Below, one piece after another: positions 13,560-41,519 of a DNA stretch of 64,000 bases. The notes under the pieces are model-generated. The model saw only the letters and a list, made by a program, of their open reading frames with translations. It made no database searches and was not told the origin of the DNA. How positions within the stretch are numbered: position 1 is the first letter of the stretch; each line of letters begins with the position of its first letter. The position numbers were made by a program, and so were the translations under genes. The DNA is from Phanerodontia chrysosporium (taxonomy: Eukaryota; Basidiomycota; Agaricomycetes; Polyporales; Phanerochaetaceae), in the NCBI GenBank assembly GCA_001910725.1, contig MJGA01000058.1, positions 18,533 to 82,532 on the forward strand. Reading direction: 5' to 3'.

Positions 13560-14229
13560 TGTCATGGATGTAATGGTGTAGCCCTATTTTTCGCCGATTT
13601 TTAGCTATTTTCCTCGATTAATCCAATGGGTGAGCAGTCCTCATGCCATCTGGAGTCCTAGCCACTCATACTCAGTGTCTGGCCACCCAGCACCAGCGCC
13701 CTAATGGCACATCATCTCTAAATGCCAGCGCATCCCACTGTGTGCTCAGTCACTGTCTAGATCACCGGTCTGCCCTGCGACTGGTTCCCCAGATCGCCAA
13801 GGAGGCATTGTCATCCCTGATGACTCTCTTCGCTGAGACATGCCGAGCTGATCATTCTGATGACACAGCCTCAGCCCGACGCAGCCTACAGACACTACTA
13901 GCTGATACAGCCTCCTGACATAGCCCCAGCACAGTCTTGCCGACTATACTGAGCACTGCCCATCAGCTTACATAATCGTATAGCCTGCTCTAAAGGATCT
14001 GTAGTATATAAGGATAGCTTTCCTCACTTCTATCTGTCATTTCAATCTCTTGGTCAATACAAACAGATAAGCCTCCATTTGTATTGTAGTTACAACACTA
14101 ATGTTATCTTGGTAAATATGGACAGCTGCGCAAGTTAGGTTGTTGCCGTGTGATTCACTTCGCTGCACCCAATTATCGTCATCCCCATTTGTCCTCCCTC
14201 GTGTAGCGTTGAGCCCTAACTCTGTGACA
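13560..14229 (+). repeat. Solo LTR of the chromovirus 1 family
   Basis: It starts TGTCATGGATG and ends CTCTGTGACA, with TGTCA/TGACA inverted ends, and is about 670 bp. The start (GGTGTAGCCCTATTTTTCGC) and the end (GTGTAGCGTTGAGCCC read inward) match the LTR at 16325-17018, which lies in the opposite orientation. Flanking five-mers are ccccc and tcccc, a possible decayed target duplication. No internal region remains, so it arose by LTR-LTR recombination. Confidence 0.8.
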
Positions 14230-15286
14230 TCCCCAGCCTTCAGAGTTTATATAAATGTGCACCAGATCCCCAGAGACCAGTGTTCAGAGTCTTAGCTGTC
14301 TAATACCTACTATGCTATTGGTTAGTATTCTACAGACATTTCTACATTCTCCTACACATTTCTAAATATTTCTACAATGTCCCAAAACCTTCTAAGATGT
14401 TCCAGCACTGTCCGGACCTGTTCAGAGACCTTCAGGACTTTCTAGTCCATTTCGAAGTATCTCAGTATTTCCAGACCTTTGTTTGCTTCCAGACCTTCAA
14501 CCATGTACTCTGTATTACCACACATATGTGCATCACATATGTACATCACATGACTGCCATATTACATGATCAGCCCTAAGTCACTCCAGTGCTTCTGCAT
14601 ATCACAGTTGGGAATAATCACTTCTGTCATTTGTTGTCCCTAACCCTAAGAGTTGAGACAAAAAAAACTGTAATAATATCATATACAAATCATTGACAAG
14701 TAATTGCCTTCCTTTCCTTTTCTGTTTTTGCCTCAGCACTGTTAGCACGTTATCCCTATATAGTTCATGAAGTGTATAATTGCAGTCTGCCATAATGTAA
14801 AAATATGCATTAGCAAAGGAAATAGTATATATCATGCAGTGTAAAGCAAGAAAGCAGACAATTTGTAGTATACAAGTAGCATATAGCAAAAAAACAGACA
14901 TGTGGTATCAATTAATTTATAGCATACAAGTAGCATGTAAACAAAATATATTGTAAAAAATATCTTACAAAGATACGGCAGTGAAAAACTCATCAGAACG
15001 CTTCTCAATGTGCTGCAGGAATGAAAACTGCTTGGTTTACTCATAGCATAGAGCTTTGCACTAGGCGGTGATATCTCTGCGCTTCAGACCATCTATCTTG
15101 CTGTTATGTACAGCTTCCAGGAGTTTTTGACATTAGTGAGTATATTACTCTTCATTTTGCCAAGTTCAATAGCCAACATATATACTGCTCTCCCTCCATG
15201 TTGACTCTTAGAACCACTACGAACTTTTAGACACCTGTCTCTGTGAGGAATCCAAAGAGTAATGAATTAGGGACCACTAAAGACAT
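14230..15286. other. AT-rich decayed repeat sequence, no gene recognised
   Basis: A TATATAAATG motif at about 14249 is followed by a C/T-rich run of CTAGAC/TTCTAC-like words, which resembles an old promoter or LTR. There is a short direct repeat around CATCACATATGTACATCACA near 14530. No coding frame stands out. Confidence 0.35.
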
Positions 15287-17056: not shown

Positions 17057-20000
17057 TTAGAGGTGATGCCCCTCCTCCCAATCGAGATCGGCCTTAGCGC
17101 AATCAGAGGCAGAAAGGTGAGAGACGTTGACTTCGGTGATGAACAGGCGAAAAGAGGCGGCGAGGGCTTCAAAGGCGGTGGCAGTGAGCTTGCAGGGCGC
17201 TTCCGGATTTTCACGATGGAACCTGTTGACCAGGGCCTTGGCATGCTTGAGGTTGTCTGCCTTTTTCCATGTGTCACCGGCTTGGCCGTAGCCTTTCCAG
17301 CGCACCTTGTACTGCAGTTGGCGGCGGTATATGCGGCTGTTGAGGACTTTCTCGACGACGTATTCCTCTTCGCCGGCAACCTTGACAGGTTTGGGAGGTA
17401 GGGGCTTCTCGACGCCCTGATCATGCCACTGGCTGAGGCGGTTGACATGGAAAACCGGGTGGATTTTCAGCCAGCTCGGGAGCTCGAGCCGATAGTCCAG
17501 ATCACCGATCTTCTCCAGAACCTTGAACGGACCCAGCTGGCGAGAGTCGAGCTTGGGCGAGGACTGGTCGATGCTGAGGTCCTTTGTGCTAAGCCAAACC
17601 TGATCGCCGACTTTGAAGGAGTGGGCGCATTTCTTCGCGGCCTCGTACTCTTCTTTCATTCGGGCTTTGGTTAGGCGCAGGGCAGCTTCGGCCTTCTTGC
17701 GAACATGAGCCATGCGATCTAGACGCTCGTCGAGGACAGGGACCTTGGTGTGCTTGCCGGCCGGGATCGTGAAGTCCGGTGTGTAGCCGTAAACGATCTC
17801 AAAGGGTATGCATTCGGTAGCACTAGACACGTGCGAGTTCAGGGTGAACTTGGCCATCGGGAGCCAATCGACCCAATCGTCTTGGTGCTGGGAGACGAAG
17901 AGACACAGGAATTTCTTGACTTCCTAGTTCTTGTGCTCGACCTTGCCGTTGCCTTCTGGGTGATACGCCGTGGTGAGGCTGGTAACGATGCTGAGGCACT
18001 TGTACAGTGCTCGCATGTATTGGGCTGCAAACTGGGGTCCACGATCAGAGAAGATCTTGTGTGGGAGGCCGTGAAGGCAGAAGATGTCCGTGTAGTGGAC
18101 TTCGCCCATGCCGGCAGCGATGATCGTCAAGTCGACCGGCACAAGGTGGCACTGATCCGAATAGTAGTCCACGTAGACCGCGATCGAATCCTTTTTGGTC
18201 TTGGCATCGCGTGGGAGCTGCGTGATGAGATCTATGCCAACATGTCCCCAGGGCCCTGAAGGGACATCGTGGGGCTGCAGAGTGGCTTTCGGGTGTGGGG
18301 CGGACTTGTACCATTGGCATTGATCACAGCTGAGCATGTAGCGGCTAATGTCGGCGGAGATGCACAGCCACCAATAGTACCGAGAGACCAGTTCGAGGGT
18401 GGTGTGCTTTCTGGGGTGTCCGGCAGTCTGCGCATCGTGGCAAGACTTGATGACGTCATTGCGCAGCGCGGCACTGTTTGGGACATAGACTTTCCCATGG
18501 TAGTACAGAAGGCCGTTGTCTTCTTCCCATTCGAGAACGCCGTTGCGCAGCTTGTGGGGCCCCTTGGTCCGGAGAATCTGCAGAGCGTCTGCGACTTCCT
18601 TTTCCTTTTCGGAGCAGTCGCGAATGCGCTTCTCGAGGGGGGAGGGGTTTGCGAAGGCTGCTGTGGCGGCTATCTTAAACAGCTCTGACTTCAATACTAC
18701 CTGCGAGCGATTGTCTTCTTCGTCAGAGACATGCAGCGAGGAGGGCCGGGAGAGCGGATCAGCCAGGAGATGGGTCTTGCCGGAGCGGTGGATGATGCGG
18801 AAGTCATACTCGGCGAGGTAGGAGGCCCACCGGGCTTGTCGCCGCATGAGATTCTGCGCAGTCTTCCAGTACTGGAGATTCTGATGATCGGTCCAGATCT
18901 CAAAAGGCTCCAGGAGACCTTCGAGAAACTGGCGCCAGTCCTTGAGAGCTTCGATGATTGCAAGCATCTCGTGGTCCCAGATCTCGTAGCCCCGCTCGGC
19001 GGGGCTCATGGTCTGCAAGCGATACATGATTGGATGCCAGAGACCATCTTCAGGGTTGTGTTGAACTATCACTCCACCGGTGGCATAGCCAGAAGCGTCG
19101 GTCTCGACGCGGGTTGCCCGATCAATGTTCCACATGGTGAGCACCGGCTGAGTTGTAAAAGCACGCTTGAGCGTCTCGAAGGCTTCTGTCTGTGCGGAAC
19201 CCCAATTAAACGGAGTGTCCTTCTTCGTCAGATCGTGCAGCGGGTGGCAGATCTTTGAGAAGTCTTTGATGAAGCGGCGATAGAAGTTGGCAAACCCGAC
19301 AAAGCCTCGTACATCTTTGAGGTTCTTCGGGGTCGGCCACTCGGCTACTGCCTTAACCTTGCCGGGGTCCATGCCGACTTGTCCTTCGCTGATGAGGAGC
19401 CCAAGATACTCGATCACTGAGCGCTCGAACTTGCACTTCTCGGGCCGAAGGTACAGATCGTATTTGGCGAGGCGTGCCAGAACCTCGTGAACAATCTTCC
19501 GATGCGAAGCGAGATCATTCGACCAGATGAGGATGTCGTCAAGGTAAACTGCGACCTTGCTTTCGGCGATGAGGTCGGCGAAGATGTGATTCATGAGGGC
19601 CTGGAACATGGTGGGGCTGTTGCACAGACCGAAGTACATGACTCAGGGCTCGAAGAGACCGCGGTTGGTGACGAAGGCGGCTTTCCACTCATTTCCTTCC
19701 TTAATCCGGACGTTGTTGTAGCCCCAACGGACGTCGAACTTGGTGAAGATCTTAGCACCCTGGAGCTTCCCGATGATGTCGGAGGCGAGCGGGAGGGGGT
19801 ACCGATCCTTCACGGTGATGTCGTTGAGCTTGCGATAGTCCTGAATGAACCGGAGTTTGCCATCCTTTTTCTTGATGAAGAAGACAGGGGAAGCGATCGA
19901 AGACTTGCTGGGGACAATATAGCCTTTGGCGAGTGCGTCGTCGATGAACCGTTGTAGTTCTTCATTCTCGATTGGGGACATCAGGTAAACCTTCGATTTG

Positions 20001-23776: not shown

Positions 23777-24307
23777 TGTCACAGTTTTCTAATTCCCTAC
23801 GGTTTTATTCTTGTAAGCGCCCAGTAGGCGCTAGGGGTTAGGGTTATGGACTAGGGTTAGGACAGGCACACGTCAGAACGCGGTCACGTGTTGGTCACGT
23901 GCTGGAAAAGGACTCAGAGTCATGTGAGGATCTTATCTTTATCTTATTTATGATGTAGACGCTCCGATACAAGGGTATAGTAGGTAGCCAGACCCAGGGT
24001 CCGGGTAGTGTATTCTAGAATAGCGTAGAAGGTTCCGGGCACATCCGGTACTCAGCTTTAGACTTCGCCGAGTCCAGAGTGTCTTGGCAAGTATCGCACC
24101 ATCATCATGCCATCGCGCATGTAATGGGCAGTATCAAGGGTCTCGGGTAGTACCAGGGGTCCTCCCCTTCATGTATATATACTGGGCTCCACTGGGCTTA
24201 AGTTCCCAGCATTATCTACCTCGTCTACCAACTACTTCACTCGCACCCACTCGCAGTCAAGTTCCCCCACTAAGCTACTAAGGTAAGTAGCGGGGTTTAC
24301 TTTGACA
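23777..24307 (+). repeat. 5' LTR of chromovirus 2
   Basis: 531 bp, TGTCAC...TTTGACA. It contains TATATATACTGGGC near 24174 and a GGTTAGGGTTATGGACTAGG segment with telomere-like words (23833-23861). Near the end a consensus 5' splice site (AAG/GTAAGT, GT at 24283-24284) is present. It matches 37732-38258 with many scattered differences, so the insertion is much older than chromovirus 3. Confidence 0.9.
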
Positions 24308-25154
24308 TTTAGATGATGCTATACCCCTTTGCGTCGACGTCAGCCTTAAGGGCTTGATCGTCGTGCGCAGTGTGCTCGACATCATTGCCGGCGACGTCGG
24401 CACCTTTTATCACGGATAATCTTGCGTTTGCAGGTTCGTCTCTTCGATGCGCGGCTACCACCTATAATATGGGTAATTATTCATTCGTGGGGCTGGCAGC
24501 TGAGGTCCATCTGTAAAAGGGGGCTGTACGTCGTCAGCCATGGGGTCGCATGGGCATTACTTGTCGAATTATCGCGAGTGATGTTTGTGTAGGCAGGTTC
24601 GAAGCGCACATTGACCTGTAATAGGCGATGCTGTGCTCGGCCTGTCTGGAGACCTAAACGACTTGGGATCTGGGGGATACGTTGGGCCACCTGACAAGGG
24701 GCTTGACATGTTGAGACCCACCGTTGGACACGTAGCGCCAGGAGTGCGACCATGTGGGTCGGCTGTGCAATACAGCATGGGAATCTTCTTGCCGATCCAC
24801 AGGCGTAAGTGGCCACGCGACGTGTGGGGTGTCGAGTCCACCGTAGGTGACCGCATCCCCGGTACTAGATGACAAGCGGTAAGACACTAGCATCTAGGAA
24901 GTTCGTGGAGATCGTAGCCGTAAGGCACGACAAACCATTTGCAGTGGGTGTGGAAACCCGACTGAGATCTGAAACTCCCCCATCATGCATGTGCAGAGAG
25001 ATAATGGCATGCTGTAACGACTCTACCCACGAATGCGCACGTATCAAGATTTGAACTGCAGCAAGAGAGGGCTGGTAACCCTCATTTTCTGAGCACTTTT
25101 CCTTTCATAAGCCGTACCTGTAAAAGGACGCTGGTTGATTATATTATCACTAAG
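24308..25154 (+). other. Long untranslated leader of chromovirus 2
   Basis: About 850 bp separate the 5' LTR from the first ATG. No clear tRNA-complementary primer site is visible immediately after the LTR, and no coding frame is convincing. The U5 splice donor upstream and an AG just before the ATG at 25155 suggest that part of it may be removed as an intron. Confidence 0.5.
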
Positions 25155-25940
25155 ATGAAGTTCTACAACAAGACCATCATTGCCTGCAACGCCGCCGCCC
25201 CCTACCCCTCCCTCGCCGAATGCATCTCGCTTCGCAAGGAGACCCAAGAAAAGGTCTACGAGGAGGTCAAGGAGAAGCTGGCCGAGATCGAGCGCCCCAA
25301 ACAGCGCGAGAAGTATCTCCTCCAGCGCGAGCGTAACCGTCGCACCGTCACCTGCCCCATTCCAAAGGCCGAGCAGGATCGCATCAACGAGGAGTTCGAG
25401 AAACGCCTCTGGGCGCTCGAACAGGCCTCCAGGCTCATCATGGAGATGAAGGTGCGCAAGCATCTCGAGGACCGAATTTCGAATCCGACTCTCTCACTCC
25501 TGAGTCGCCTGGGTCCCCCTCAGCACCTGTCTCAAGAAGAGGTCGAGGAGACATATGGGAACAATGGCGACATGCAAGGCAAGGTCCCGAAAGAAGCAGG
25601 TCGTATGCAGAAGTCGCACATCATCGATCGAACTAAAGAGATGATGAACTCGTTCAACGCGATAAACCTTCGTTTGGTACCGCTCAGCGACCACCTCGTC
25701 GACATCGACAAGGTCGACAAGGAGCTAGGCGACAAGGTCTCGAAGTTACTGGTTGACTTTGAAGACTTATACGACCACTTCGACGAGAATAAGGGGAGAA
25801 AGAAGTTGAAGGGAAAGCATTACAGGTGGATAACGAGGGATCTAAAGAAAATAAAATATGTATCCTTCGAAAACTTTAGTACTCGATATGTAGAGATCGC
25901 AAGGGAGCTTGTCGCTCTCAATATCTCATTCAAATACTGA
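25155..25940 (+). CDS. Extra ORF upstream of chromovirus 2 gag
   Basis: An intact 261-codon frame with a true ATG directly after AG. The N-terminal half is strongly charged and likely coiled-coil (KETQEKVYEEVKEKLAEIER, EQDRINEEFEKRLWALEQAS). The C-terminal half is also helical and basic (RKKLKGKHYRWITRDLKKIK). There is no zinc motif, signal peptide or membrane segment. It has no stop codons, although gag and pol beside it carry many, so it may have decayed less by chance or under constraint. Not recognised. Possible roles such as RNA binding or assembly are guesses. Confidence 0.6.
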   Translation: MKFYNKTIIACNAAAPYPSLAECISLRKETQEKVYEEVKEKLAEIERPKQREKYLLQRERNRRTVTCPIPKAEQDRINEEFEKRLWALEQASRLIMEMKVRKHLEDRISNPTLSLLSRLGPPQHLSQEEVEETYGNNGDMQGKVPKEAGRMQKSHIIDRTKEMMNSFNAINLRLVPLSDHLVDIDKVDKELGDKVSKLLVDFEDLYDHFDENKGRKKLKGKHYRWITRDLKKIKYVSFENFSTRYVEIARELVALNISFKY

Positions 25941-26045
25941 ATCTACCTGTAACCCAATGAAATAAAAACTCCACCTGATATTGAACTTCTGTGTGATACA
26001 TAAGAGTTTTCCTTACTTTCCAACTGTAAAAGTGGAAAGAATTTG

Positions 26046-26068
26046 TACTAACATACCTTTTGACTCAG
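26046..26068 (+). promoter_or_regulatory. Probable 3' splice site just upstream of chromovirus 2 gag
   Basis: A perfect branch-point word TACTAAC (26046-26052) is followed by a pyrimidine-rich stretch and CAG ending at 26068, five bases before the gag ATG at 26074. This is the arrangement of a fungal intron end. The partner donor could be the GTAAGT in the LTR (24283) or a weaker one after the extra ORF. Confidence 0.55.
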
Positions 26069-26073
26069 AAACA

Positions 26074-27640
26074 ATGGCTGACGCTGATCAAATCGCTGCC
26101 ATCAACTGAACCAACATCAACTTGTCCTCGGACAATATCCAACTCTCTCACGAGACCATGGTTCAGGCCATCTCCTCGGTCACAGCACCAGAGGAAATAT
26201 CACAGAACCAAAGGATCTTCATCCAAGAATCGATCTACGCAGGGGTTGTTGAAGCCTCCCGTCAGAACGAGGCCCACATGAGGCACCTATTCGATGGGTT
26301 CCTCAATATTTTTAACGGGACTATGACAACGATTCTGGAGAGGGTGGACGAAGTCTGCAGTGAGCTGGTTGAAACCCAGCAAATCACCTATGTCCAGGAA
26401 TCCATGCTGGAAAGCATCAAGAGGATCGCAGACAATGCGATCAAACAGTTGAACGCCCTCCCAGCTGGTATCGGTTCAGGAGGTGGCGCACCTGCTCACC
26501 CCAAGTCCGCCCAACCGCCACTCTTCTCAGGCGAGAAAAATACGACAAAGTTTGAGGAATGGAAAAACCTGGTCAAACTTTGGAACAGCACCCAGGGCAT
26601 CACGACGGACAAACATCGCATCGTCAATGCGTTGTCCCTGTTGCGTGAACCGGCCCTAAAGCTGATGCAACCACTGTTGGACAAGAATGCCAGGGGCGAG
26701 GACATGGGCTCGGTTGACAGTTTCTGGACTAGTTTCCAGATGGTATACAGTCAAAAGGATGTTACGCGCACGGCAACGAAGGATCTCGAGAAGCTACTCA
26801 ATGACAAGTCGGCTTTCCAGAAGGACATCATCAACTACTTGGTTCGCTTCAAGGTACTCCTCGACAACAGCAGCAAGCCGTTCACGGATGCGCATATGAT
26901 TAACAAGCTATACGACAACGTTGAGGAGAAGCTGGGCATCTTCATGCTGGGTCGCGGTCGCTCGAGTTGGCCTACAACTGCGTCGGAATTCATGACGTAT
27001 CTCGTTGAGGCATACAAGGAACTTTACCCCGACTGCGCAGCGACGCACATCTTCAGCAAGGGAAACTCGCACGGCTCGGGTTCTACATCGGACCCGAATA
27101 CTATGGACATCAGCGCGGCTCAGACGGGCAAGGGCAAAGGCAAGGGGAAATAACAGGCGAATTCACAAGAAGCCAAGAAGGTTTCAACTCTCTGCGCCAT
27201 TTGCACCGAGCTGAAGAAGTTCGCGCGTGCTAAAACGCACGTGACTTCGGACTGCTTCTCGCTCAAGGACCAGAAGCCGCAACAGTCCTCTGGTAACAAC
27301 AATAACGGCAAGGCCTCCTCCTCGAGCGGGGGAAGTAACAATCAAGGAAAAGGCAAGAACGCAGCGGCAATCGCCACCAAGAAAAACTCCTTCAATCAAG
27401 CAAAGGCCAGGATGGCTGAACTGGAGAAGGAGATCGCGGAACTCGAGGCCGACGACGAAGTCGTTATCAATGCGGCCTGTATCCACGAATGGACAGAGGA
27501 GGACGAGAAGGAGTTGAAACAGACCCCCCCAGGAACCTGTTGATAAGCGGGAAGCTAGGTGTGCATGTATGAAGGCCTGAGCTGCTAAATACACGAAATC
27601 GTCTGACCGAAAGGTGGATTTTTTCAACAACCTGTAGTGG
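26074..27640 (+). pseudogene. Chromovirus 2 gag with nonsense codons
   Basis: The ATG at 26074 is followed by TGA at 26107-26109. The frame then runs through a capsid region (KNTTKFEEWKNLVKLWNS, PALKLMQPLLDKNARGED, FIMLGRGRSSWP-like stretch) to TAA at 27151-27153. It continues in the same frame with a CAICTELKKFARAKTHVTSD zinc-knuckle-like segment. A C7 run near 27530 shifts the frame; the shifted frame reads EPVDKREARCACMKA, then more stops. Two stops fit CGA to TGA and CAA to TAA. Confidence 0.85.
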
Positions 27641-28516
27641 ATCCCTGCGTTCTACAGGTTAATAACGCTGATCATGTACCCATGGCCAAGTCTACACTGG
27701 ATGTAGATAGAGTAATTGATATTGATGTATTGAACGTCTCACGTAATAAATCTTTATCGTTCAAACTTTCTATTACTCTGTGGGTGTATGGTAAAAAAGC
27801 GCAGGCAGAAGCCCTGGTTGATTCAGGCGCCACGACGAGTTTCATCAATCACAGCTTCATCGAAAAGAACAATCTGGTAACTATTAAGTTGGCAAATCCG
27901 TATGAAGTAAAAAATGCGGATGGAACGATCAATAAAGCAGGACGAATCACTCACGCCCTGCAAGCCTACTTGGAAATTGGAACACACAAACATACCCAGT
28001 ATTTGCTTGTGACGGATTTGCACAACAAAGACATGTATATAGGGTACAAGTTCCTACACCGGCATAACCCAGAAATTGACTGGGCAAAAGGCAATTGGGA
28101 GTTCACCAGATGTCCTGAATCATGCAAAGTCTCCAGCATGGCACAGAAAGTCCAAGCCCTTGACATCGAAATCGGCAATGACGAGGAGCTGGCAGAGCTC
28201 GAACCAGAGCAACCTTGGGAATCCTCACTGGACGATATTGGAGAAGAGGATATTCCCCACCACATCAACTGGGTTGATTTCAGTAACCCAGAGGAACGAA
28301 CGCAAGCCGAGGCTGTCGCTGACATCCTGAAAAAGGATAACGACGATACAGTTGACACCTCGCAATGGAAATCACAGGTACCGAGTTGGGTTCACAAATT
28401 CGAAAGCGTATTCAGCAAAACCAAGTCTGAACGCATGCCCACCCACAAACCATGGGATCATGCCATCGAATTTGAGGAAGGAGCAAAATTGCCCCCAATC
28501 GGAAAGGTGTACCCGC
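27607..28516 (+). pseudogene. Chromovirus 2 protease and start of RT region
   Basis: The open frame contains ALVDSGATTSFINHSFIEKN (active-site DSGA at about 27820-27832), then a linker rich in acidic residues. It then has HKFESVFSKTKSERMPTHKP WDHAIEF, the segment just before the RT fingers. The frame is cut at base 28516 by chromovirus 3 and resumes in phase at 34417. Confidence 0.9.
28512..28516 (+). repeat. Target site duplication of chromovirus 3 (left copy)
   Basis: cccgc lies immediately before the 5' LTR, and the same five bases follow the 3' LTR at 34412-34416. Removing one copy and the element restores the host pol frame. Confidence 0.9.
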
Positions 28517-28907
28517 TGTAACCCGACTGCTCGGGTTACAACGGACTTTCTAGCACAACCACGGACTATAGTAGCGTACCTGACTCAAACACGGACCCAT
28601 AGCTACACATAACGCGCCCGCGCATCACACTCCTTCCCCTTTCGTATTGCTCCCGCTACTCTTTCCCCTTTTATCCAGAACCCGCCTTCGTCGTCATCGC
28701 CCCTCCGTCCAAACCTTGTTTTTCGTTCCCTTATATTCCTCGCCCTCGAGCCGTGGTCTCTAGTCTCTTTCCCCCGGCTCGAAGGTATGCCCCCTTTTAT
28801 GTCTCTTGACCAACTTGTATTGAGTCTCTTTCCCCCGGCTCGAAGAATATATCTTGTGCCCGTTCATTGCTCGAAATTGAGTGACTCGCACGCACCGCGA
28901 GCTTACA
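28517..28907 (+). repeat. 5' LTR of chromovirus 3
   Basis: TGTAAC...CTTACA, 391 bp. The first 24 bases form a perfect hairpin: a 10-base stem (TGTAACCCGA / TCGGGTTACA) around CTGC. The word GTCTCTTTCCCCCGGCTCGA occurs twice (near 28767 and 28825). No obvious tRNA primer site follows; the sequence after the LTR is cttttttttgaacgtc. Confidence 0.95.
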
Positions 28908-29217
28908 CTTTTTTTTGAACGTCACACAAGTTTTCGAAGAGCTGGTGGTACCCCGCGCTACCACCGCTACCGCCTCCGTCTTACGTCTCCGTCCCTCCGT
29001 CGTCGCACCGTAACCGCAACAGCCGTTCGTCACTCTGGCGGACGACCTGAGCTTCGCATCCGATCTCACACCGATATCGGACGAGTTGGAATCTGAGTTC
29101 GAGCAGGAAGAGGTGCAGTACCCCCCGTTGCCACCCTCGCCCTCTCCCTCTACGTCCTCTTCGTCATCCTCTTCGTCTTCCGACTCCGCATACACCGCAT
29201 ATACCCAACCGCACACG

Positions 29218-32200
29218 ATGGATCCGAAGAAGAAGATCGCTACTGTCACGTCGCAAGGCGCCAAGCACGTCCCGAGGCTCTCTCTGGGTACGGTCACGCC
29301 TGACGCGCTGCTCACGTTCCAACAAATGGTGTGTATGCACTTCTTCAACCACAAGGAGGTCGCCGACGACAAGCGAGTGGCCGCGATCGCACCCGGGTTC
29401 GAGGACCCTTATATCGCCACCTGGTTGTTCACCAACGAAACCCGTCTCAAGGCTCTCACCTATTCAGACTTCTGGGTAGAGTTCAAGAAGCGTTGGTTGA
29501 AGAAGACCTGGGCGGACGATATCAAGGCGGAAATCGTCCACGCGCACATGTCCGACGACCAGGACTTCGATGGTTGGGTGGAGAACCTCGAACGCCGAAA
29601 CACGCTCCTCGTCGACACCGACCAACACTTGTCGGAAGCCGCCCTACGCGAACACATTAAGACGCATGCCTGTCAAGATCTCCGCAAGTATGCGATCTCC
29701 GACGTAGGCAAGGCCGTCACCGACTATGACGAATTCAAGGGCAAACTGTCCGAACTCGACGAGGACCGCCGTTGTCGCCGCGCCGAAATTCTCGCTGCCA
29801 TCGCCGCCGCGGCACCTGCCCACAAGCCGGCTACGACGGTCCCAAAGTCAAACTCGAACAACGCCTCGACTTCGGCGACGCTACTGCCCAAGCTCACCCC
29901 GGCGGAACGACAGTACCTCGATGCCAATAGCGGATGTTACAAGTGTCGCAAGGTCAACGTCACTCATCGTTCCCGAGAGTGCCCAAACGGATACCCGGAC
30001 GCGCGCACCTACATCTCGCCCGTGCCCGGCAACGCCACTACGACTAAACCGACCCGTGTCGCCGCCGTAACGACCGTCGAAGATTCCGCGCCTACGGCAC
30101 CGGAGTCCATCGTCATCGCTGCGGTCAAGGGCCCGAGCGCGCTCCCGTCTTGCGTGCTTAGCTCCCCCGACGATGATCAGTCCTCGTCAGACGACGACAC
30201 CGGGTGCGTCCCCGCCAATCTTACATCACACCACATCCCCTTCCGTGCTGTTGTCCATTCGCCCATCACCATCTCCCATGAAGTTCCCATGCTGATCGAC
30301 TCTGGTTCACCAGCCGTACTGGTTGACGCTGCCTTCGCATCAGCTATCGGCTTGCGTCTACGCAAGCTACCAGAACCAAAGTCAATGGGAACCGCTTGGG
30401 GTGGAAATGAACAGCATACATCAGAGTGGTGTAAGATTAGGGTGTCTCTACCGGATATGTCATGGACATCGCGCACCGTCTCCGCGATCGTCGTCGACAA
30501 TCTCTTTGTCCCTGTAATATTAGGACTCCCCTTCTATAAGCATAACGACCTGTTAATCGATCCTGTCCACGACGCGCTCGTCATCCGCTCCACCGGACGC
30601 GATATTCTACACGATCCTCCGCCACCGCCGAAGCCACCCTCATTGTCGCCCAAGCAACGGCATGCAGAGCAACGAGAGCGCGAGATCGAACAACAGGAAC
30701 ACGAAGTGTTAGAAGCGTGGCGAATTCGGACCATACAACGAGACGTCTTGCGCGAGCTCAAGATGCTCTTCGGCGAGCCCTTGCACCCGCAGGGCGACAC
30801 GACAACCCAAGTCGACGTCCTCGCTGCGGTCCGCACACGCGTCGAAGAGTTGGCCATCGAACAACGTCTCCAACGCAAGAACGAGATGTTGCGCGCACAG
30901 TTCGCGGACTGCTTCCCCGACGACATTCCACCCGTGCACCAACTGCCCGACAATATCCTTCACCGCTTCCGCCTGAAGAACCCTGATATGGTCATCGCTA
31001 GACGGCAGTATGAATGTCCTCGCAAATATCGGGAAGCCTGGAAGCAACTACTCGAGCAACACATCGCTGCCGGTCGGATCCGCCCCTCGTCCAGTCCCTA
31101 CGCGTCACCTGCCTTCCTCATTCCAAAGTCTGATCCCACCGCCCTTCCCCGTTGGGTTAACGACTACCGCGCCTTGAACGCCAACACCATCGCTGACGTT
31201 CACCCGCTACCGAGCATAGCGGAGATCCTGGCCGACTGTGGAAAAGGAAAGATCTGGGGCAAGATCGACATGACGAACTCGTTCTTCCAGACTCGCGTAC
31301 ATCCCGACGACGTACCCTACACCGCTGTCACTACACCCTTCGGCCTGTTCGAATGGACAGTCATGCCCCAAGGCTGCCGTAACGCACCAGCGACACATCA
31401 GCGACGCATGTTCTCAGCACTGCGCCAACACATCGGCACCATCTGTCACGTCTACCTTGACGACATCATTATCTGGTCCAACTCCATCGACGAACACCGC
31501 GACAACGTTACACAAGTCCTCGAAACCTTACGACAACACCAACTTTATTGCTCCCCCAAGAAAACCCAACTTTTCGCCTTCGAAATCGACTTCCTCGGAC
31601 ACCACATCTCTCAACGCGGCATCGAAGCGGACGGCTCCAAAGTGGACAAGGTACTCGCATGGCCGCGGCCTCGAAACGCTAAAGACGTTCGTTCCTTCCT
31701 AGGCCTGGTTCGCTACATCTCGAACTTCCTACCGGCACTTGCTGACCATACGAGGATATTGAACGGGTTGACAACCAAGGAATCTGACCGCGATTTCCTT
31801 TGGACAGATGAACACGAGACCGCATTCAATGCTGTCAAACGCCTCGTCACTTCACGCGAGTGTCTCACGGTCATCGACCATCAGAACATGGGCGACAACC
31901 GCATCTTCGTCTCCTGCGACGCCAGCGACTGGTGCACAGGCGCCGTTCTTTCGTACGGACCGACCCTCGCCACCGCGCGACCAGTCGCCTACGAGTCAAC
32001 CACTCTCAAGGCCGCCGAGCTCAATTACCCTGTCCATGAGAAGGAACTCCTCTCGATCGTGCGCGCACTCAAAAAGTGGCGAGTAGACCTGATCGGTGTT
32101 CCGTTTACAGTCTACACTGATTACCGCACGCTCGAGAACTTTGAGACGCAAAAGCATCTCTCGCGCAGACAAGCCCGGTGGCAGGAAGACCTGTCCCAGT

Positions 32201-33987
32201 ACGATTTCGAGATCGTCTACATCGCGGGCAAAGACAACGGTCCCGCGGACTGCATGTCTCGCCCTCCGAACGTCGTGCCCGCGGAGGTCATCGGTGCCGT
32301 TTGGACCGCCACACGGTCCCTCTGCAACCGGCCTAACCCGGTCGAGTCCGCAGGGGCCGTGCACGGTTCGTTCACCGTCCGTTCTGACCCAGATTGGTTG
32401 GCTACCATATCTGCCGGTTACGAACAGGATAACTGGTCGCGCAAATTGCTCGACGTCCTCTGGGACTCGGTCGCAAAAGACGCACAGCCGGTCGAGCACC
32501 GCTCCATGCCTGCCGGGCATGCGCTCCGTGCTGGCTGGCTCGACGGCTGTTCGCGCATGGGCATCACAGCGCGCAACGCTTTACTCTATGTCGGGAACCG
32601 CTTGGTCGTCCCTCGAGTTGGACACTTACGCGAGGATTTATTCCGCCTCGCACACGACGCTCTCGGGCATTTTGGGACTGACAAATCTTACGCCTCCCTA
32701 CGGTCAGGTTACTATTGGCCCAACATGCGAAAAGAACTCGACGACCTTTACGTCCCGGCGTGCCCGGACTGCCAACGGAACAAAGACCGCAACCAGAAAC
32801 CCACCGGTCCGTTACACCCTCTCCCCGTCCCAGACGGCCGGTGCGAAAGCATCGCGATCGACTTCGTCGGCCCCTTGCCTGAGGACGACGGGTACAACAG
32901 CATCTGTACTATCACCGATCGCCTAGGCTCGGATCTACGCGTCTTTCCATGTCGTACTGACATTTCTGCGGAAGACTTTGCAGACCTTTTCTTCCGCGAA
33001 TGGTACTGCGAGAACGGCCTCCCACTAGACATCATCTCCGACCGCGACCACCTCTTCATTTCTCGCTTCTGGCGCGCACTTGCTCGGCTCACCGGCGTCC
33101 GACTCAAGATGTCCACGTCTTACCACCCGCAGACCGACGGCTCGAGCGAGCGCTCCAACCGCACCATCATCCAGGCCATACGCTACCATGTCCAGTGCAA
33201 CCAGCGCGGCTGGGTGAAGGCCTTACCGATCATCTGGTTCAACCACATGAACACTGTCAACGCGTCCACGGGCTATACCCCCTTCCAACTCCGCTACGGC
33301 CGCTCACCGCGGATAATCCCACCTCTCGTCCACGCCGACCAGGCACTGACCGTCGACGCGCTCGGGCCTACCGCAGCAGACGCACACAACCTCCTCACCC
33401 GCATCGAGACCCAAGTACTGGACGCGCAAGACAATTTACTCTTGGCCAAAACCCAACAGGCCTTCGCTGCTAACCGACACCGCGGTCCCGAACAGGTCTA
33501 CCGCGTCGGCGACAAGGTCCTTCTCTCGACTTTCCACCGTCAGCGGGACTACATGCAGCGAGGCGACCATCGCGTCGCGAAATTCATGGTCCGTTTCGAC
33601 GGCCCCTTTGTCGTCACCGACGCGCGACCTGAGGCGTCGGTGTACACGCTCGACTTGCCCGATCACATGGACATTCTGCCTACGTTCCATGCCTCGTTGC
33701 TCCGTCCATGGGTCGCCAATGACGACGCGGCTTTCCCCTCTCGGGCTCTCGCAGAACCCGGCCCCGTCGTCACCGACGACGGTGAACGTGAATGGCTAGT
33801 CGACCGCGTCCTCGATCGTCGCCGCCGCGGTCGCGGTTACCAATACCTCGTCCGCTGGCATGGATACGGCCCCGAACACGACACTTGGTTGCCCGGCCGC
33901 GAGGTTGCTGACCTCGAAGCACTCGCGGCCTGGGCGGCCGAGAACGATGTCGTCGATCTCTCACCTGAAAGTTCCGCTCAGGGTTAG
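29218..33987 (+). CDS. Chromovirus 3 Gag-Pol polyprotein
   Basis: I chose the ATG at 29218; the frame is open further upstream but without ATG. The 1589-residue product contains a capsid region with LTYSDFWVEFKKRWLKKTWA and a zinc knuckle CYKCRKVNVTHRSRECPNG (about 29936). Next come protease MLIDSGSPAVLV (about 30290), RT with KIDMTNSFFQTRVHPDD and YLDDIIIWS, and RNase H with SCDASDWCTGAVL. Integrase has a zinc module (HDALGHFGTDK..., CPDCQRNK) and catalytic DFVGPLP, SDRDHLF and SSERSNR. The C-terminus is a chromodomain (VDRVLDRRRRGRGYQYLVRW HGYG). Gag and Pol share one frame, so no frameshift is needed. Confidence 0.97.
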   Translation: MDPKKKIATVTSQGAKHVPRLSLGTVTPDALLTFQQMVCMHFFNHKEVADDKRVAAIAPGFEDPYIATWLFTNETRLKALTYSDFWVEFKKRWLKKTWADDIKAEIVHAHMSDDQDFDGWVENLERRNTLLVDTDQHLSEAALREHIKTHACQDLRKYAISDVGKAVTDYDEFKGKLSELDEDRRCRRAEILAAIAAAAPAHKPATTVPKSNSNNASTSATLLPKLTPAERQYLDANSGCYKCRKVNVTHRSRECPNGYPDARTYISPVPGNATTTKPTRVAAVTTVEDSAPTAPESIVIAAVKGPSALPSCVLSSPDDDQSSSDDDTGCVPANLTSHHIPFRAVVHSPITISHEVPMLIDSGSPAVLVDAAFASAIGLRLRKLPEPKSMGTAWGGNEQHTSEWCKIRVSLPDMSWTSRTVSAIVVDNLFVPVILGLPFYKHNDLLIDPVHDALVIRSTGRDILHDPPPPPKPPSLSPKQRHAEQREREIEQQEHEVLEAWRIRTIQRDVLRELKMLFGEPLHPQGDTTTQVDVLAAVRTRVEELAIEQRLQRKNEMLRAQFADCFPDDIPPVHQLPDNILHRFRLKNPDMVIARRQYECPRKYREAWKQLLEQHIAAGRIRPSSSPYASPAFLIPKSDPTALPRWVNDYRALNANTIADVHPLPSIAEILADCGKGKIWGKIDMTNSFFQTRVHPDDVPYTAVTTPFGLFEWTVMPQGCRNAPATHQRRMFSALRQHIGTICHVYLDDIIIWSNSIDEHRDNVTQVLETLRQHQLYCSPKKTQLFAFEIDFLGHHISQRGIEADGSKVDKVLAWPRPRNAKDVRSFLGLVRYISNFLPALADHTRILNGLTTKESDRDFLWTDEHETAFNAVKRLVTSRECLTVIDHQNMGDNRIFVSCDASDWCTGAVLSYGPTLATARPVAYESTTLKAAELNYPVHEKELLSIVRALKKWRVDLIGVPFTVYTDYRTLENFETQKHLSRRQARWQEDLSQYDFEIVYIAGKDNGPADCMSRPPNVVPAEVIGAVWTATRSLCNRPNPVESAGAVHGSFTVRSDPDWLATISAGYEQDNWSRKLLDVLWDSVAKDAQPVEHRSMPAGHALRAGWLDGCSRMGITARNALLYVGNRLVVPRVGHLREDLFRLAHDALGHFGTDKSYASLRSGYYWPNMRKELDDLYVPACPDCQRNKDRNQKPTGPLHPLPVPDGRCESIAIDFVGPLPEDDGYNSICTITDRLGSDLRVFPCRTDISAEDFADLFFREWYCENGLPLDIISDRDHLFISRFWRALARLTGVRLKMSTSYHPQTDGSSERSNRTIIQAIRYHVQCNQRGWVKALPIIWFNHMNTVNASTGYTPFQLRYGRSPRIIPPLVHADQALTVDALGPTAADAHNLLTRIETQVLDAQDNLLLAKTQQAFAANRHRGPEQVYRVGDKVLLSTFHRQRDYMQRGDHRVAKFMVRFDGPFVVTDARPEASVYTLDLPDHMDILPTFHASLLRPWVANDDAAFPSRALAEPGPVVTDDGEREWLVDRVLDRRRRGRGYQYLVRWHGYGPEHDTWLPGREVADLEALAAWAAENDVVDLSPESSAQG

Positions 33988-34006
33988 CCCCCCTGATGAA
34001 TTTTTC

Positions 34007-34020
34007 GGGATGGGGGAGAG
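34007..34020 (+). other. Polypurine tract of chromovirus 3
   Basis: GGGATGGGGGAGAG directly precedes the TGTAAC start of the 3' LTR. Confidence 0.85.
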
Positions 34021-34411
34021 TGTAACCCGACTGCTCGGGTTACAACGGACTTTCTAGCACAACCACGGACTATAGTAGCGTACCTGACTCAAACACGGAC
34101 CCATAGCTACACATAACGCGCCCGCGCATCACACTCCTTCCCCTTTCGTATTGCTCCCGCTACTCTTTCCCCTTTTATCCAGAACCCGCCTTCGTCGTCA
34201 TCGCCCCTCCGTCCAAACCTTGTTTTTCGTTTCCTTATATTCCTCGCCCTCGAGCCGTGGTCTCTAGTCTCTTTCCCCCGGCTCGAAGGTATGCCCCCTT
34301 TTATGTCTCTTGACCAACTTGTATTGAGTCTCTTTCCCCCGGCTCGAAGAATATATCTTGTGCCCGTTCATTGCTCGAAATTGAGTGACTCGCACGCACC
34401 GCAAGCTTACA
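34021..34411 (+). repeat. 3' LTR of chromovirus 3
   Basis: 391 bp, two substitutions from the 5' LTR. It ends CTTACA and is followed by the cccgc duplication (34412-34416). Confidence 0.95.
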
Positions 34412-34416
34412 CCCGC

Positions 34417-37018
34417 TAGACCAGAAGCAACGCTCGTCTTTCGACGAGTGGATTCGTGAGGAACGCCGAAAAGGCTACATTGAAGAGTCGAAGTCACCCA
34501 TCGCTGCCTCATTCTTTTTCGTAAAGAAAGCCGATGGTAGTTTGCGACCTTGCATGGATTACCGCCCGTTGAACGGAATTACGAAAAAAACCGTTATCCT
34601 ATCCCTCGCATCGCTGATTTAATCGACGCACTATCTCAGGTGTCGATATTCACAAAAATCGATCTTCGATGGGGATATAACAATGTCCGCATCAAGGAAG
34701 GTGACGAGTGGAAAACGGCTTTTGTAACCAAGGACGGTTTATTCCAGGCCAAAGTTATGTACTTTGGATTCGCAAACGCACCGGCAACATTCCAGAATAT
34801 GATGAACAACATTTTCGAAGACCTTATCCGTCAAGGAAAGGTTATGGTCTACCTCGACGATATTCTCATCTTCGGCAACGACCGCGAGGAACATCAAAAG
34901 ATCGTACACAAAGTGCTGCAGCGACTAGAAGACAACAACCTCTTCACAAAGGCAGAAAAGTGTCTATTTGAGAAGGACAAGCTTGCCTATCTTGGCATGA
35001 TTATATCCAAGAAGATTGTAGAAATGGACCCTGCTAAAGTCACAGGCGTAACGGAGTGGCCCGTACCAACCAAGGTCAAGCACGTTCAGGCATTCCTTGG
35101 ATTTGCGAATTTCTATCGCAGGTTTATTAAAGACTTTGCAAAGATCACGAAGCCACTCACGGTACTCACCAAGAAGGACCAACCATAGGAATGGGGTTCT
35201 GACCAGCAGAAGGTGTTTGACAACCTGAAAAAGGTGTTCACTTCTGCACCAATTCTACGAATTCCGGACGACGTTAAATCGTTCAGGCTCTCTACCGATG
35301 CGAGTGACTTCGCGATCGGCTCGGTTCTGTCACAACTCGACCCAAACGATAAGCTTTACCATCCGGTAGCCTTCCACTCCAAGTCACTCAATGTTCACGA
35401 AAGGAACTATGAGATATACGACAAGGAGATGTTGGCCATAATCCGCGGGTTAGAAGAGTATAGGCACTATCTAGAGGGACATCCGGAGAAATTCGAGATA
35501 TGGTCAGACCACCAAAACCTGACTTATTTCAAGCAGGCCCAGAAATTGTCTTGCCGTCAAACTCATTGGGTATTATACCTAACAAGATTCCATTTCACAC
35601 TACACCACAAGCCGGGTAAAACAATGGAAGCTGAAGATCCTCTGTCCAGGAGATCAGATCATGAAGAAGGGGTAGAACTCGATAATCGCGACCATATTCT
35701 TCTGAAGCCAGAATTTTTCGCCAATCTGCTCGAAGTCTGCGCGATCGACGTCTCCCATGATGCTCCAGTAAACGACGATTTACTGCTCCAAGAGGTTAAG
35801 AAGGCTCTGTTATCCGACGAAGTCACCAAGAACTATCAATCGTTACTCAAATCAGGCCCACGCGAGTTCAAGAAACCGTTAGAGGAATGGAACTTTGAGA
35901 ATGGATTGCTACTCTTCCGGGGACATATCTACATACCAAAGGATGAGAATGAGGACTTGCGACGACAAGTAGTCCAAATGCACCACGACCACCCATCAGC
36001 CGGACATCCAGACAGGTGGAAGACCTACGAACTTGTCTCCCGAAACTATTGGTGGCTGGGAATGTCTGTCTTCGTCAAGAAATACGTCACAGGCTGCGAC
36101 ACGTGTCAGCGAATAAAGAATTGCACACGGCAGACCTACGGACAACTCATGCCCAACAAGGTACCTAATGGACCTTGGGAAGTTATTACCATCGACTTGA
36201 TTACTTAGTTGATGCCGTCAAGAGGAAAGGATGCCATTCTAGTTGTTGTATGCCGACTCACCAAGAGAGCACGTTTCTTCGCGATAACAAACAAATTCTC
36301 TGCTAAAGACCTCGCAAAGATCCTGATGGATAGAATTTACCCTATCCACGGACTATCTTTGCAGATAATCTCTGACAGAGGAACTCAATTCGTGGCTGAA
36401 CTCTTTCAAGAATGGTGTAAGCTACTTGGTATCGAGTCAGCGATGTCTACGGCATATCACCCTCAGACAGACGGTCAAACAGAATGAGTAAATCAAGTTC
36501 TAGAACAGTACCTACGCTGCTTCGCTGATAATGTCAATCACAAAGACTGGGTCGATTATCTGCCCACCGCAGAATTCGCTTACAACAATGCAGCACACGA
36601 AAGTACAAAGGACATGCCGTTCTTTCTAGAATATGGTAGACACCCACGGGCAGGACTAACTCTCGACAAGCAAGCCAAAAGCAAAGACTTGAACGAGATA
36701 TTCAGACTTAGACAAGACGCCCAAGACAAGGCCAAAGCAGCCCTACAACTAGCAGCGAACCATATGAAGTGGTACTACGACCAGAACAAGCAAGAAGTGC
36801 CGTTTAAAGTCGGTGACAAAGTCTTGCTGAATTCAAAGGATTACCAAACCACTCAACGCACGCTGACATCGAGGTTCCTAGGACCGTTCGAAATCATCGA
36901 ACAATTATCCAAAGTAACCTTCAAGGTGAAACTGCCTCCACAATACAGGGCATATCACCCGGTGTTCCATGCTAGTAAATTAATCCCCTATTCTACACCC
37001 TCCATCATCGGCCAATGA
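34417..37018 (+). pseudogene. Chromovirus 2 RT, RNase H and integrase
   Basis: The frame resumes after the nested element with FDEWIREERRKGYIEES and RPCMDYRPLNG. It shifts at an A7 run (34584-34590) where one A seems missing. It continues with KIDLRWGYNNVRIKEGDEWK, YLDDILIFG, RNase H STDASDFAIGSVL, an integrase zinc module (HHDHPSAGHPD..., CDTCQRIK), SDRGTQF and an AYHPQTDGQTE region. In-frame stops are TAG 35186-35188, TAG 36206-36208 (expected Gln after DLIT), TGA 36485-36487 (expected Arg after QTE) and TGA 37016-37018. Confidence 0.92.
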
Positions 37019-37690
37019 GCCGCACCACCAGAGTCAGAAGTTCATAACGGAGAGCTCGAGTACAAGGTTGAGAAAATTCTCAATCATAAGACTACTGGGT
37101 GTGTCAGAAAACGAAACTGGTACATAGTTTGATGGAAGGGTTATGGGCCAGAAGAAGAAGACAAATGGGAACCAGAGAGTAATCTGGAAGGTGCTAAAGA
37201 GAAGATCGCGGAATTTTGGCGCGTTCGGAACGAAGAAGCACCTATGGAAACAGACGGTTTAGAACTCGACGAAGAGGAAACCCTTCAGATCGTTCTAGAT
37301 GGTGGAAAAACACCATCCAAGAGTACCACCGAGGCAGCAGGCTGGGACCTGTATGCAGCAGAAGACGCAACAATTCTGGCAGGAGACCGCAAAATCATCA
37401 GCACTGGCATTCGCATCCGAGTTCCAACTGAAACCTATGGACGAATTGCACCATGATCAGGACTTGCACTCAAAGGCATTCATGTCGGCGCGGGTGTTAT
37501 CGACTGGGACTACACGAGTATCGTCAAAATACTACTCCTTAACACAAGCGACAGTGACTTCACAGTCACGACTGGAGATAGAACGGCCCAATTGATCCTG
37601 GAGAAAATTGCCGATGCCGACATAGAAGTTGTCAAAACGCTACAATCAACCGATCGTGGTTCAGGCGGGTTTGGATCCACTGGAAAATAA
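37019..37690 (+). pseudogene. Chromodomain plus dUTPase domain at the end of chromovirus 2 Pol
   Basis: In the pol frame a chromodomain (LEYKVEKILNHKTTG, then WKGYGPEEEDKWEPES) has TGA at 37130-37132. Directly after it a trimeric-dUTPase fold is recognisable by five ordered motifs: AGWDLYAAED (37337-37366), RIAP-stop-SGLA (37442-37468), GAGVIDWDYT (37487-37516), GDRTAQLIL (37574-37600) and RGSGGFGSTG (37655-37684). The frame ends TAA at 37688. The stop at 37454-37456 replaces the Arg of the RSGLA motif and fits CGA to TGA. The catalytic Asp in GVID and the Tyr are kept. dUTPase hydrolyses dUTP to dUMP, limiting uracil in reverse-transcribed DNA. Such fusions are known in some retroviruses; here it is the C-terminal domain of a fungal chromovirus. 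Confidence 0.9.
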
Positions 37691-37717: not shown

Positions 37718-37731
37718 TGAAGAGGGGGTAC
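37718..37731 (+). other. Polypurine tract of chromovirus 2
   Basis: TGAAGAGGGGGTAC lies immediately before the TGTCACAG start of the 3' LTR. Confidence 0.75.
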
Positions 37732-38258
37732 TGTCACAGTTTTCTAATTCCCTACGGTTTTATTCTCGTAAGTGCCCAGTAGGCGCTAGGGGTTAGGGTT
37801 ATGGACTAGGGTTAGGACAGGCACGGGTCAGAACACGGTCACGTGTTGGTCACGTGCTGGGAAAGGACTCAGAGTCATGTGAGGATCTTATCTATATCTT
37901 ATCAATGATGTAGACGCTCCGGTACAAGAGTATAATAGGTAGCCGGACCCAGGGTCTGGGTAGTGTATTCTAGAATAGTGTAGAAGGTTCTGGACACATC
38001 CGGTACTCGGCTTTAGACTTCGCCGAGCCCGGAGTGTCTTGGCAAGTATCACACCATCATCACGCCATTGCGCATGTGATGGGCAGTATCAAGGGTCTTG
38101 GGTAGTACCAGGGGTCCTCCCCTTCATATATATATACCGGGCTCTGCTGGGCTTAAGTCCCTAGCATCATCTACCTCGTCTACCCCACACTTCACTCTTC
38201 GCAGTCAAGTCCAACCCCACCTAAGCTACTAAGGTAAGTAGCGGGGTTTACCTTGACA
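37732..38258 (+). repeat. 3' LTR of chromovirus 2
   Basis: 527 bp, TGTCAC...CTTGACA. It keeps the telomere-like words (37788-37816), the TATATATATACCGGGC motif and the GTAAGT near the end (GT at 38234). Confidence 0.9.
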
Positions 38259-39816: not shown

Positions 39817-40342
39817 TGTCAAAGTATACCCCGCTACTTACCTTAGTAGCTTTGGTGGGGTTGGACTTGACTGCGAGAGTGAAGTGGTTAGAAGATGAGG
39901 TAGATAATGTTGGGGACTTAAGCCCAGCAAATCCCAGTATATATACATGAAGGGGAGAACCCCTGGTACTACCTGAGACCCTTGATACTGCTCATCACAT
40001 GCACGATGGCGTAATAATGGTGTGATACTTGCCAAGACACTTTAGGCTCGGAGAAGTCTAAAGCCGAGTACCAAATGTATCCAGAACCTTCTACGCTATT
40101 CTAGAATATACTACCCAGACCCTGGGTCTAGCTACCTACTATACCCTTACATCAAAGTGTTTACATCATAGATAAGATAAAGATCAGATCCTCACATGAC
40201 TCTGAGTTCATTTCCAGCACATGACCAACATGTGACCGCATTCTGACGTGTGCCTGTCCTAACTCTAGTCCATAACCCTAACCCCTAGTATCTATTGGGT
40301 GCTTATAAGAATAAAACTGTAGGGAATTAGAAAACTGTAACA
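39817..40342 (-). repeat. Solo LTR of the chromovirus 2 family, inverted
   Basis: On the minus strand it starts TGTTACAGTTTTCTAATTCC (40342) and ends with CTTTGACA (39817), about 526 bp. It matches 23777-24307 throughout, including the telomere-like words (about 40261-40290) and the GTAAGT splice-donor word. No target duplication is evident (taatg and tgata). Confidence 0.85.
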
Positions 40343-40986: not shown

Positions 40987-41519
40987 TGTAACAGTATCAT
41001 AGTTTTCCAATTCCCTATAGTTCTATCTTCTTGAACACTCTACAAGCACTAGTGATTAGGGTTACAGATTTAGGACAGATATACGTCATGACATGATCAT
41101 GTGTTGGTCACATACTGGTAATGGACTTAAAGTTATATAATGATCTTATTAGTATTATATCTATGATGTAGATGTCCTGGTATAGGGGTATAGTAGATAG
41201 CTGGGCTCAGGGCCCAGGTAGTGTAATCTAAGACAGCATAGAAGGTTCTGAACACATCTGATCCTCAGCTCTGGACTTCATCAAGCCCAGATTGTCTTGG
41301 AAAGGATCACACCATCATCACACCATCATACATGTGATGGGCAGTATTAAGGGTCCCAGGTAATACCAGGGGTCCTCCCCTTCATGTATATATATTGGAC
41401 TCTGCTGGGCTTAAGTCCTCAGCATTATCTACCTGGTCTACCAATTACTTCACTTGCACCACTTGCAATCAAGTTCCCCCACTAAGTTACTAAGGTAAAT
41501 AGCAGGGTTTACTTGGACA
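40987..41519 (+). repeat. Degenerate solo LTR of the chromovirus 2 family
   Basis: It starts TGTAACAGTATCATAGTTTT with a short insertion relative to the other copies and ends GTTTACTTGGACA. Many C/G to T/A differences from the other LTRs show it is the oldest copy. The GTAAAT at the splice-donor place and the TATATATAT promoter word are still recognisable. Confidence 0.8.

What the first reader, a model, noticed from the sequence alone, without database searches (positions are those of the whole stretch)
37310..37690. dUTPase domain fused to the C-terminus of a fungal chromovirus Pol
All five dUTPase motifs occur in order after a chromodomain in the pol frame, just before the polypurine tract. 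This gives PR-RT-RH-IN-chromodomain-dUTPase. dUTPases are known in some retroviruses, where they sit in other places of Gag-Pol. A chromovirus that pairs histone-mark-guided integration with nucleotide-pool sanitation would be a notable variant. I cannot say whether it has been described.
Basis: partly seen in the sequence, partly recalled or inferred. Interest (0 to 1): 0.85.

Follow-up and report, generated by a model that had tools for sequence, protein, structure and literature searches.

The report
Degraded chromovirus copy with C-terminal dUTPase
This is a broken copy of a common fungal jumping element whose polymerase protein ends in an enzyme that removes a harmful DNA building block; the arrangement is real and has many intact copies, but its kind was already described in another fungus in 2010.

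Summary
Pfam scores the stretch as dUTPase on both sides of an in-frame stop, and the half chromodomain before it as Chromo. The copy belongs to a nearly full-length element (LTRs 23777-24307 and 37732-38258), split by a younger chromovirus without dUTPase at 28517-34411 and carrying six internal stops in 34550-37687. It is not a one-copy host capture: of 150 scored dUTPase matches in this genome, 69 lie in open frames of at least 1300 codons, 15 of them of this family's length, 1391-1393. Open copies compared with L009 give dN/dS 0 to 0.15, and the five intact family representatives keep the catalytic residues scored. A second C-terminal family, and families with dUTPase between PR and RT, share the genome. 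The architecture is not new: Novikova et al. 2010 (PMC2864245) put dUTPase at the N-terminus, C-terminus or between PR and RT of Pol in Postia placenta elements. Beyond that I see patchy presence within one clade, relatives with ruined dUTPase tails, and one apparent relocation inside Pol. Likely function: dUTP removal during reverse transcription (inferred).

The parts
23777..24307 (+). 5' LTR of the dUTPase element (531 bp; 90.8% identical to the 3' LTR)
   Evidence: blastn to L009/L010 and LTR against LTR
24308..28516 (+). 5' internal part: gag-like region (by eye) and the N-terminal Pol piece with the protease (Pol begins near 27607, worked out from the coordinates; open piece 27637-28521)
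   Evidence: 94-95% nucleotide identity to L009/L010 over the aligned parts; ORFs
28517..34411 (+). nested younger chromovirus-type element without dUTPase; LTRs 28517-28907 and 34021-34411 differ at 2 of 391 bases; CCCGC on both sides (28512-28516, 34412-34416); intact 1633-codon frame 29086-33987
   Evidence: chromodomain at the end of its frame by eye only; no dUTPase match
34412..37018 (+). RT-RNase H-integrase part of the interrupted Pol, with in-frame stops
   Evidence: translation of 34550-37690 with stops shown; alignment to L009
37058..37222 (+). chromodomain, cut by a stop codon at 37130-37132
   Evidence: Pfam Chromo on the 3' half; approximate left edge from L009; stop checked
37298..37684 (+). 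dUTPase domain, motifs 1-5 in order, cut by a stop codon at 37454-37456 inside motif 2
37688..37690 (+). terminal stop codon of the Pol frame, one codon after motif 5
37719..37728 (+). polypurine tract before the 3' LTR
   Evidence: sequence
37732..38258 (+). 3' LTR of the dUTPase element

Best explanation
The stretch is the 3' end of a decayed member of a multi-copy chromovirus (Ty3/gypsy) family whose Pol is PR-RT-RH-IN-chromodomain-dUTPase. In intact members the dUTPase is the last domain of Pol and most likely works as an ordinary homotrimeric dUTPase carried in the element's particle: it hydrolyses dUTP near the reverse transcriptase, so that less uracil enters the cDNA, while the chromodomain beside the integrase is thought to steer integration. 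Shown: the domain order, the open frames, conserved catalytic residues, selection on the protein; predicted: a dUTPase fold for a related chromodomain-dUTPase protein. Inferred: enzyme activity, trimerisation, release from or retention on integrase, benefit to the element. The window copy, with stops in both domains, cannot make the enzyme.
For: Pfam order in intact frames L009 (Chromo 1186-1238, dUTPase 1267-1392) and L016 (1160-1211, 1257-1384). 69 of 150 scored matches lie in open frames of at least 1300 codons without a stop in the match. Of 14 full-length (387-base) L009-family dUTPase sequences held, from 11 places (three places fetched twice; three shorter matches, L021, L024 and L025, were dropped), 13 rows from 10 places are open and the window's is not. 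The nine other open places differ from L009 by 7-20 synonymous and 2-5 nonsynonymous changes (dN/dS 0.05-0.15), or 3 and 0 for the closest. For L009/L010 dN/dS is 0.07 in dUTPase, 0.02 in RT, 0.05 in RNase H, 0.21 in IN. The seven residues scored are kept in all five own representatives; L016 has RS for RG at the start of motif 5. Best solved relatives are 3p48 and 3f4f, 154 bits; 3f4f is titled Dut1 of Saccharomyces cerevisiae. A model of P0130 (20-row alignment, pLDDT 79.7, pTM 0.57) matches dUTPases in all 50 listed PDB rows, probability 1.00, TM 0.70-0.87 by target length, though rmsd is mostly 10-13.
Against: No activity, expression or transposition data. The dUTPase is missing from 17 of 25 rows of the same RT-IN clade and ruined in P0241 and P0252, so many close relatives seem to do without it; some of those proteins may be cut by contig ends. 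In the P0130 model residues 83-99, between the two domains, have pLDDT under 50, so nothing is known of how the domains sit together.
Confidence: 0.8

Rival explanations
1. The domain is a recent capture of the host dUTPase gene in this copy only, with no role in the element.
For: The domain is of the eukaryotic cellular type: 154 bits to 3p48/3f4f against 72 bits to the Pol chain 1f7d (that 1f7d is a lentivirus is recalled).
Against: 150 scored dUTPase matches in the genome, 69 in long open frames; same architecture in P0001 from another source, 70% identical over the 164-residue query; selection on the protein.
Confidence: 0.02
2. The dUTPase serves chiefly as an oligomerising or structural tail of integrase and catalysis is incidental.
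For: Two relatives keep a dUTPase-derived tail without catalytic residues: P0252 (motifs 1-4 altered, ends before motif 5; still 32 bits to a solved dUTPase) and P0241. A lentivirus needs its inactive dUTPase-related sequence for replication (PMC4261571, abstract).
Against: 83 of 98 retroelement dUTPases examined keep all seven residues I scored, which a purely structural role would not require; both ruined tails could simply be decaying.
Confidence: 0.12
3. The window element is a recombinant of two family members rather than one insertion.
For: Its LTRs differ at 39 of 534 alignment columns plus three gap openings, and no matching target-site duplication is seen outside them; further LTRs of the family lie at 39817-40342 and 40997-41519.
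Against: An old insertion with decayed flanks looks the same; internal parts on both sides of the nested element are about equally close (94.3% and 95.1%) to L009.
Confidence: 0.3

Closest known systems
PosPlaTy3-4 (Postia placenta, Novikova et al. 2010, PMC2864245)
   Same: Gypsy element of a basidiomycete with dUTPase at the carboxyl-terminus of Pol; the same paper reports N-terminal and PR-RT positions in sister families, and this genome too holds C-terminal and PR-RT families
   Different: Sequence not available here, so no identity is known; whether its dUTPase lies directly after a chromodomain is in a figure that is not held
dUTPase-containing Metaviridae of Phanerochaete chrysosporium (Novikova and Blinov 2008) and Tmt1 of Tuber melanosporum (Riccioni et al. 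2008)
   Same: dUTPase inside a fungal LTR retrotransposon
   Different: Known to me only as citations in the papers read; PMC5408684, citing Riccioni, says the domain lies between PR and RT there
Juno, Vesta and TelKA elements of bdelloid rotifers (PMC5408684)
   Same: dUTPase in Pol of retrovirus-like LTR elements
   Different: Between PR and RT, no chromodomain (passages read)
Retroviral dUTPases (PMC4531489, passages; PMC5408684, passage)
   Same: Homotrimeric-type dUTPase made as part of Gag-Pol; [quoted passage not shown]
   Different: The retroviral chains in the solved set are far less similar (72 bits for 1f7d, 66 for 2d4l; retroviral identity recalled) and no chromodomain precedes them (recalled)

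Membership tests
dUTPase family (PF00692) | profile score over the curated cut-off | tested here: met
   both window pieces over 22 bits; five intact representatives 130.6-138.8 bits
dUTPase family (PF00692) | five motifs with catalytic Asp and Tyr of motif 3 | tested here: met
   met in L009 and L016; window copy has the motifs in order but a stop in motif 2. Residue roles and motif numbers recalled
dUTPase family (PF00692) | dUTP hydrolysis | not testable with these tools
   no assay
Chromovirus (chromodomain-containing Ty3/gypsy) | PR-RT-RH-IN order with chromodomain after integrase | tested here: met
   L009 and L016 Pfam order
Chromovirus (chromodomain-containing Ty3/gypsy) | GPY/F-type (SH3) module before the chromodomain | tested here: met
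   PF24626 SH3_Tf2-1 at 1103-1162 in L009; that this is the GPY/F module is recalled
Chromovirus (chromodomain-containing Ty3/gypsy) | RT placed among named chromovirus clades (MarY1, Laccy, Tcn1 and others) | not tested
   reference sequences of those clades were not at hand
PosPlaTy3-4-like elements | dUTPase at the C-terminus of Pol | tested here: met
PosPlaTy3-4-like elements | same clade by RT/IN sequence | not testable with these tools
Retroviral dUTPase lineage | closest relatives are retroviral dUTPases | tested here: not met
   154 bits to 3p48, 72 to 1f7d, 66 to 2d4l among solved structures

The most novel reading that the evidence does not exclude
In fungal chromoviruses the dUTPase is a portable module that passes between lineages and between positions of Pol (C-terminal to PR-RT), rather than being captured afresh from hosts each time, and in some lineages it stays on as a catalytically dead tail with a structural job on the integrase, as the inactive dUTPase-related protein of bovine immunodeficiency virus stays needed.
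Probability: 0.25. Interest if true: 0.55.

Novelty: new member of a known kind. Interest (0 to 1): 0.27.

Why it matters
As it stands it adds a well-preserved family, in a genome that holds intact copies of both C-terminal and internal designs, to a kind of element known since 2008-2010. The useful lead is evolutionary: intact, absent and ruined dUTPase tails within one RT clade would let one ask when an element needs its own dUTPase, and whether dUTPases of retroelements travel between elements rather than coming from hosts.

Tried and rejected
Host gene: a search of the own genome with the yeast Dut1 protein scored 150 of 190 candidates; I saw none that I could recognise as the host gene, but did not examine every short-frame match, so the host dUTPase was not found. 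The species was not identified; an RPB2 exon scores 705 bits against 3h0g and 698 against 1i3q, and 605 at best against the next group (that these are fission yeast, budding yeast and animals is recalled), which supports a fungus but no more. Trees of the dUTPase domain alone (130 columns) are poorly resolved: 17 of 144 inner branches well supported in the 149-row tree. One-clade tests of the C-terminal dUTPases of the L009/L016 clade neither rejected nor showed a single origin (p-AU 0.273 and 0.367; 0.289 and 0.321). In the tree the PR-RT dUTPases of this genome (L014, L026) and P0030 fall among the C-terminal ones, against simple descent by position. dN/dS between families could not be computed because synonymous sites are saturated. 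No Rfam match in the window at gathering threshold. Paper searches in the held library; in those listings and the passages I read I saw no report of relocation or decay of the dUTPase in fungal chromoviruses, but supplementary files and most subscription journals were not searchable.

Full report
Observation. In the pol frame of the window, 37133-37453 scores as Chromo (27.2 bits) plus the start of dUTPase (36.3 bits), and 37457-37687 as the rest of dUTPase (77.2 bits). The own-genome search puts one dUTPase match at window 37307-37684 with 128.5 bits and one TGA inside. Only these two of the window's stop-to-stop pieces of 25 or more residues match a dUTPase profile at E up to 0.1, and 2000 residue shuffles stay at or below 8.2 bits.

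The whole element. Alignment to an intact relative (L009) shows that the window holds a nearly complete element at 94-95% identity: 5' LTR 23777-24307, internal part to 28516, then from 34412 on to the 3' LTR at 37732-38258. The gap is a younger element, 28517-34411, whose LTRs differ at 2 of 391 bases, with a 5-bp duplication; its intact 1633-codon frame has no dUTPase match and ends in what looks like a chromodomain (by eye). The insertion splits Pol between PR and RT. The downstream half has six internal stops in 34550-37687. The element's own LTRs are 90.8% identical and no target duplication is seen. Of 305 substitutions from L009 to the window, 203 are C>T or G>A, of which 109 fall at CpG sites of L009; 70 go the other way. 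This is the pattern of decay of methylated repeats (inference).

The family. Of 150 scored PF00692 matches in the 39.0-Mb genome (189 candidates), 11 have a stop inside the match and 69 lie in open frames of at least 1300 codons: 15 of 1391-1393 codons, 33 of 1385, one of 1382, 15 of 1752, two of 1829, one of 1778, one of 1609 and one of 1317. I assign these to families by frame length; only some were fetched. Pfam on one intact member each shows dUTPase after the chromodomain in the 1393 and 1385 families (L009, L016) and before RT in the 1752, 1829 and 1778 families (L026, L014, L015), after a protease by Pfam in L026 and L014 and by my own profile in L015. The window copy belongs to the 1393 family. 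So the domain is a fixed part of the family, not a capture in one copy.

Selection and catalysis. Fourteen full-length L009-family dUTPase sequences were held, from 11 places (L004/L009, L005/L010 and L001/L018 are the same places; L021, L024 and L025 were dropped as shorter). Ten places are open, the window's is not. Nine other open places differ from L009 mostly at synonymous sites (dN/dS 0.05-0.15, and 0 for L003 with three synonymous changes); the window copy gives 0.19. Between L009 and L010 the value is 0.07 for dUTPase, 0.02 for RT, 0.05 for RNase H, 0.21 for integrase; between L016 and L017 it is 0.11 for dUTPase and 0 for RT. Of 98 retroelement dUTPases examined, 83 keep all seven residues scored. 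The nearest solved relatives are 3p48 and 3f4f (154 bits; yeast Dut1 by the title of 3f4f), against 72 bits for the Pol chain 1f7d, so the source is of cellular eukaryotic type. A model of P0130, a 239-residue chromodomain-dUTPase protein from an unnamed source, has two domains joined by a stretch of pLDDT under 50 and matches solved dUTPases in all 50 listed rows, with rmsd mostly 10-13.

Relatives. Among the 120 listed of 140 proteins plus five own ones, my profiles find dUTPase before PR, between PR and RT, between RT and IN, and after the chromodomain (8 of 125); 31 rows show only the dUTPase, and several of those carry PF07727, which I recall as the copia-type RT. In an RT-IN tree of 43 rows (45 proteins picked from those held, two with repeated domains dropped), L009 and L016 lie in a clade of 25 rows (support 100/100), of which 7 have a C-terminal dUTPase, 17 have none and end 6-40 residues after the chromodomain, and one is cut; some ends may be contig ends. 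P0252 and P0241 in that clade carry dUTPase-derived tails that lost catalytic residues and end before motif 5, and P0246 has changes in motifs 2 and 3; whether P0241 ends at a true stop is unknown. The stretch leading into the dUTPase is alike in P0246, P0241, P0252, P0130 and P0161, which favours one gain and several losses, but the dUTPase trees do not settle it. In another clade the C-terminal dUTPase of P0086 is 81% identical to the PR-RT dUTPase of P0007 although their RT is 60% and IN 37% identical. The RT-IN tree joins P0086 to the C-terminal P0005, P0048 and P0076 (99/94), while dUTPase trees join it to P0007 and P0033 (100/87; 92/84). Holding the five C-terminal ones together is rejected at p-AU 0.023, a group chosen after seeing the tree; the four without P0086 are not rejected (0.146). 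This suggests relocation of the module inside Pol; assembly chimeras are not excluded.

Literature. Novikova et al. 2010 (PMC2864245; passages and section 5 read) report dUTPase at the amino-terminus (PosPlaTy3-3), at the carboxyl-terminus of Pol (PosPlaTy3-4) and between PR and RT (PosPlaTy3-5), cite earlier finds in Phanerochaete and Tuber, say that acquisition seems independent from different sources, and repeat the assumption made for viruses that the domain allows replication in non-dividing cells. A rotifer study (PMC5408684, passages) and the retroviral review (PMC4531489, passages) describe other positions; the rotifer paper also names a position after IN in retroviruses. The inactive dUTPase-related sequence of bovine immunodeficiency virus is nonetheless needed for replication (PMC4261571, abstract).

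Mechanism. Most likely the dUTPase acts in the particle or on the integrase-bound complex to keep dUTP low during reverse transcription. This rests on the conserved enzyme and on what is known of retroviral dUTPases; nothing here shows activity.

Noticed in passing
window 28517-34411: Young, intact element without dUTPase nested in the dUTPase element; LTRs differ at 2 of 391 bases, 5-bp duplication.
   Followed up: partly
window 39817-40342 and 40997-41519: Further LTRs of the same family, the first inverted relative to the element, 86% and 79% identical to L009's LTR.
   Followed up: no
window 19278-19993 and 13387-14665: A stretch 66-68% identical in nucleotides to the RT region of the PR-RT dUTPase families, and pieces 79-88% identical to sequence just downstream of the 1385-family Pol, probably its LTR.
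   Followed up: no
L028 4516-4902 and 5545-5913: Two dUTPase domains of the 1385 family about 0.6 kb apart, possibly nested or tandem copies.
   Followed up: no
P0164 against P0123 (protein alignment A1): P0164 looks like the L016 type in its first half and like P0123, nearly letter for letter, in its last part: a recombinant or an assembly chimera.
   Followed up: no
P0252 and P0241: Chromovirus Pols with dUTPase-derived tails that lost catalytic motifs and end before motif 5.
   Followed up: partly
P0012 and P0066: Wallemia proteins of 2133 and 2008 residues that carry a dUTPase domain together with several other Pfam domains.
   Followed up: no
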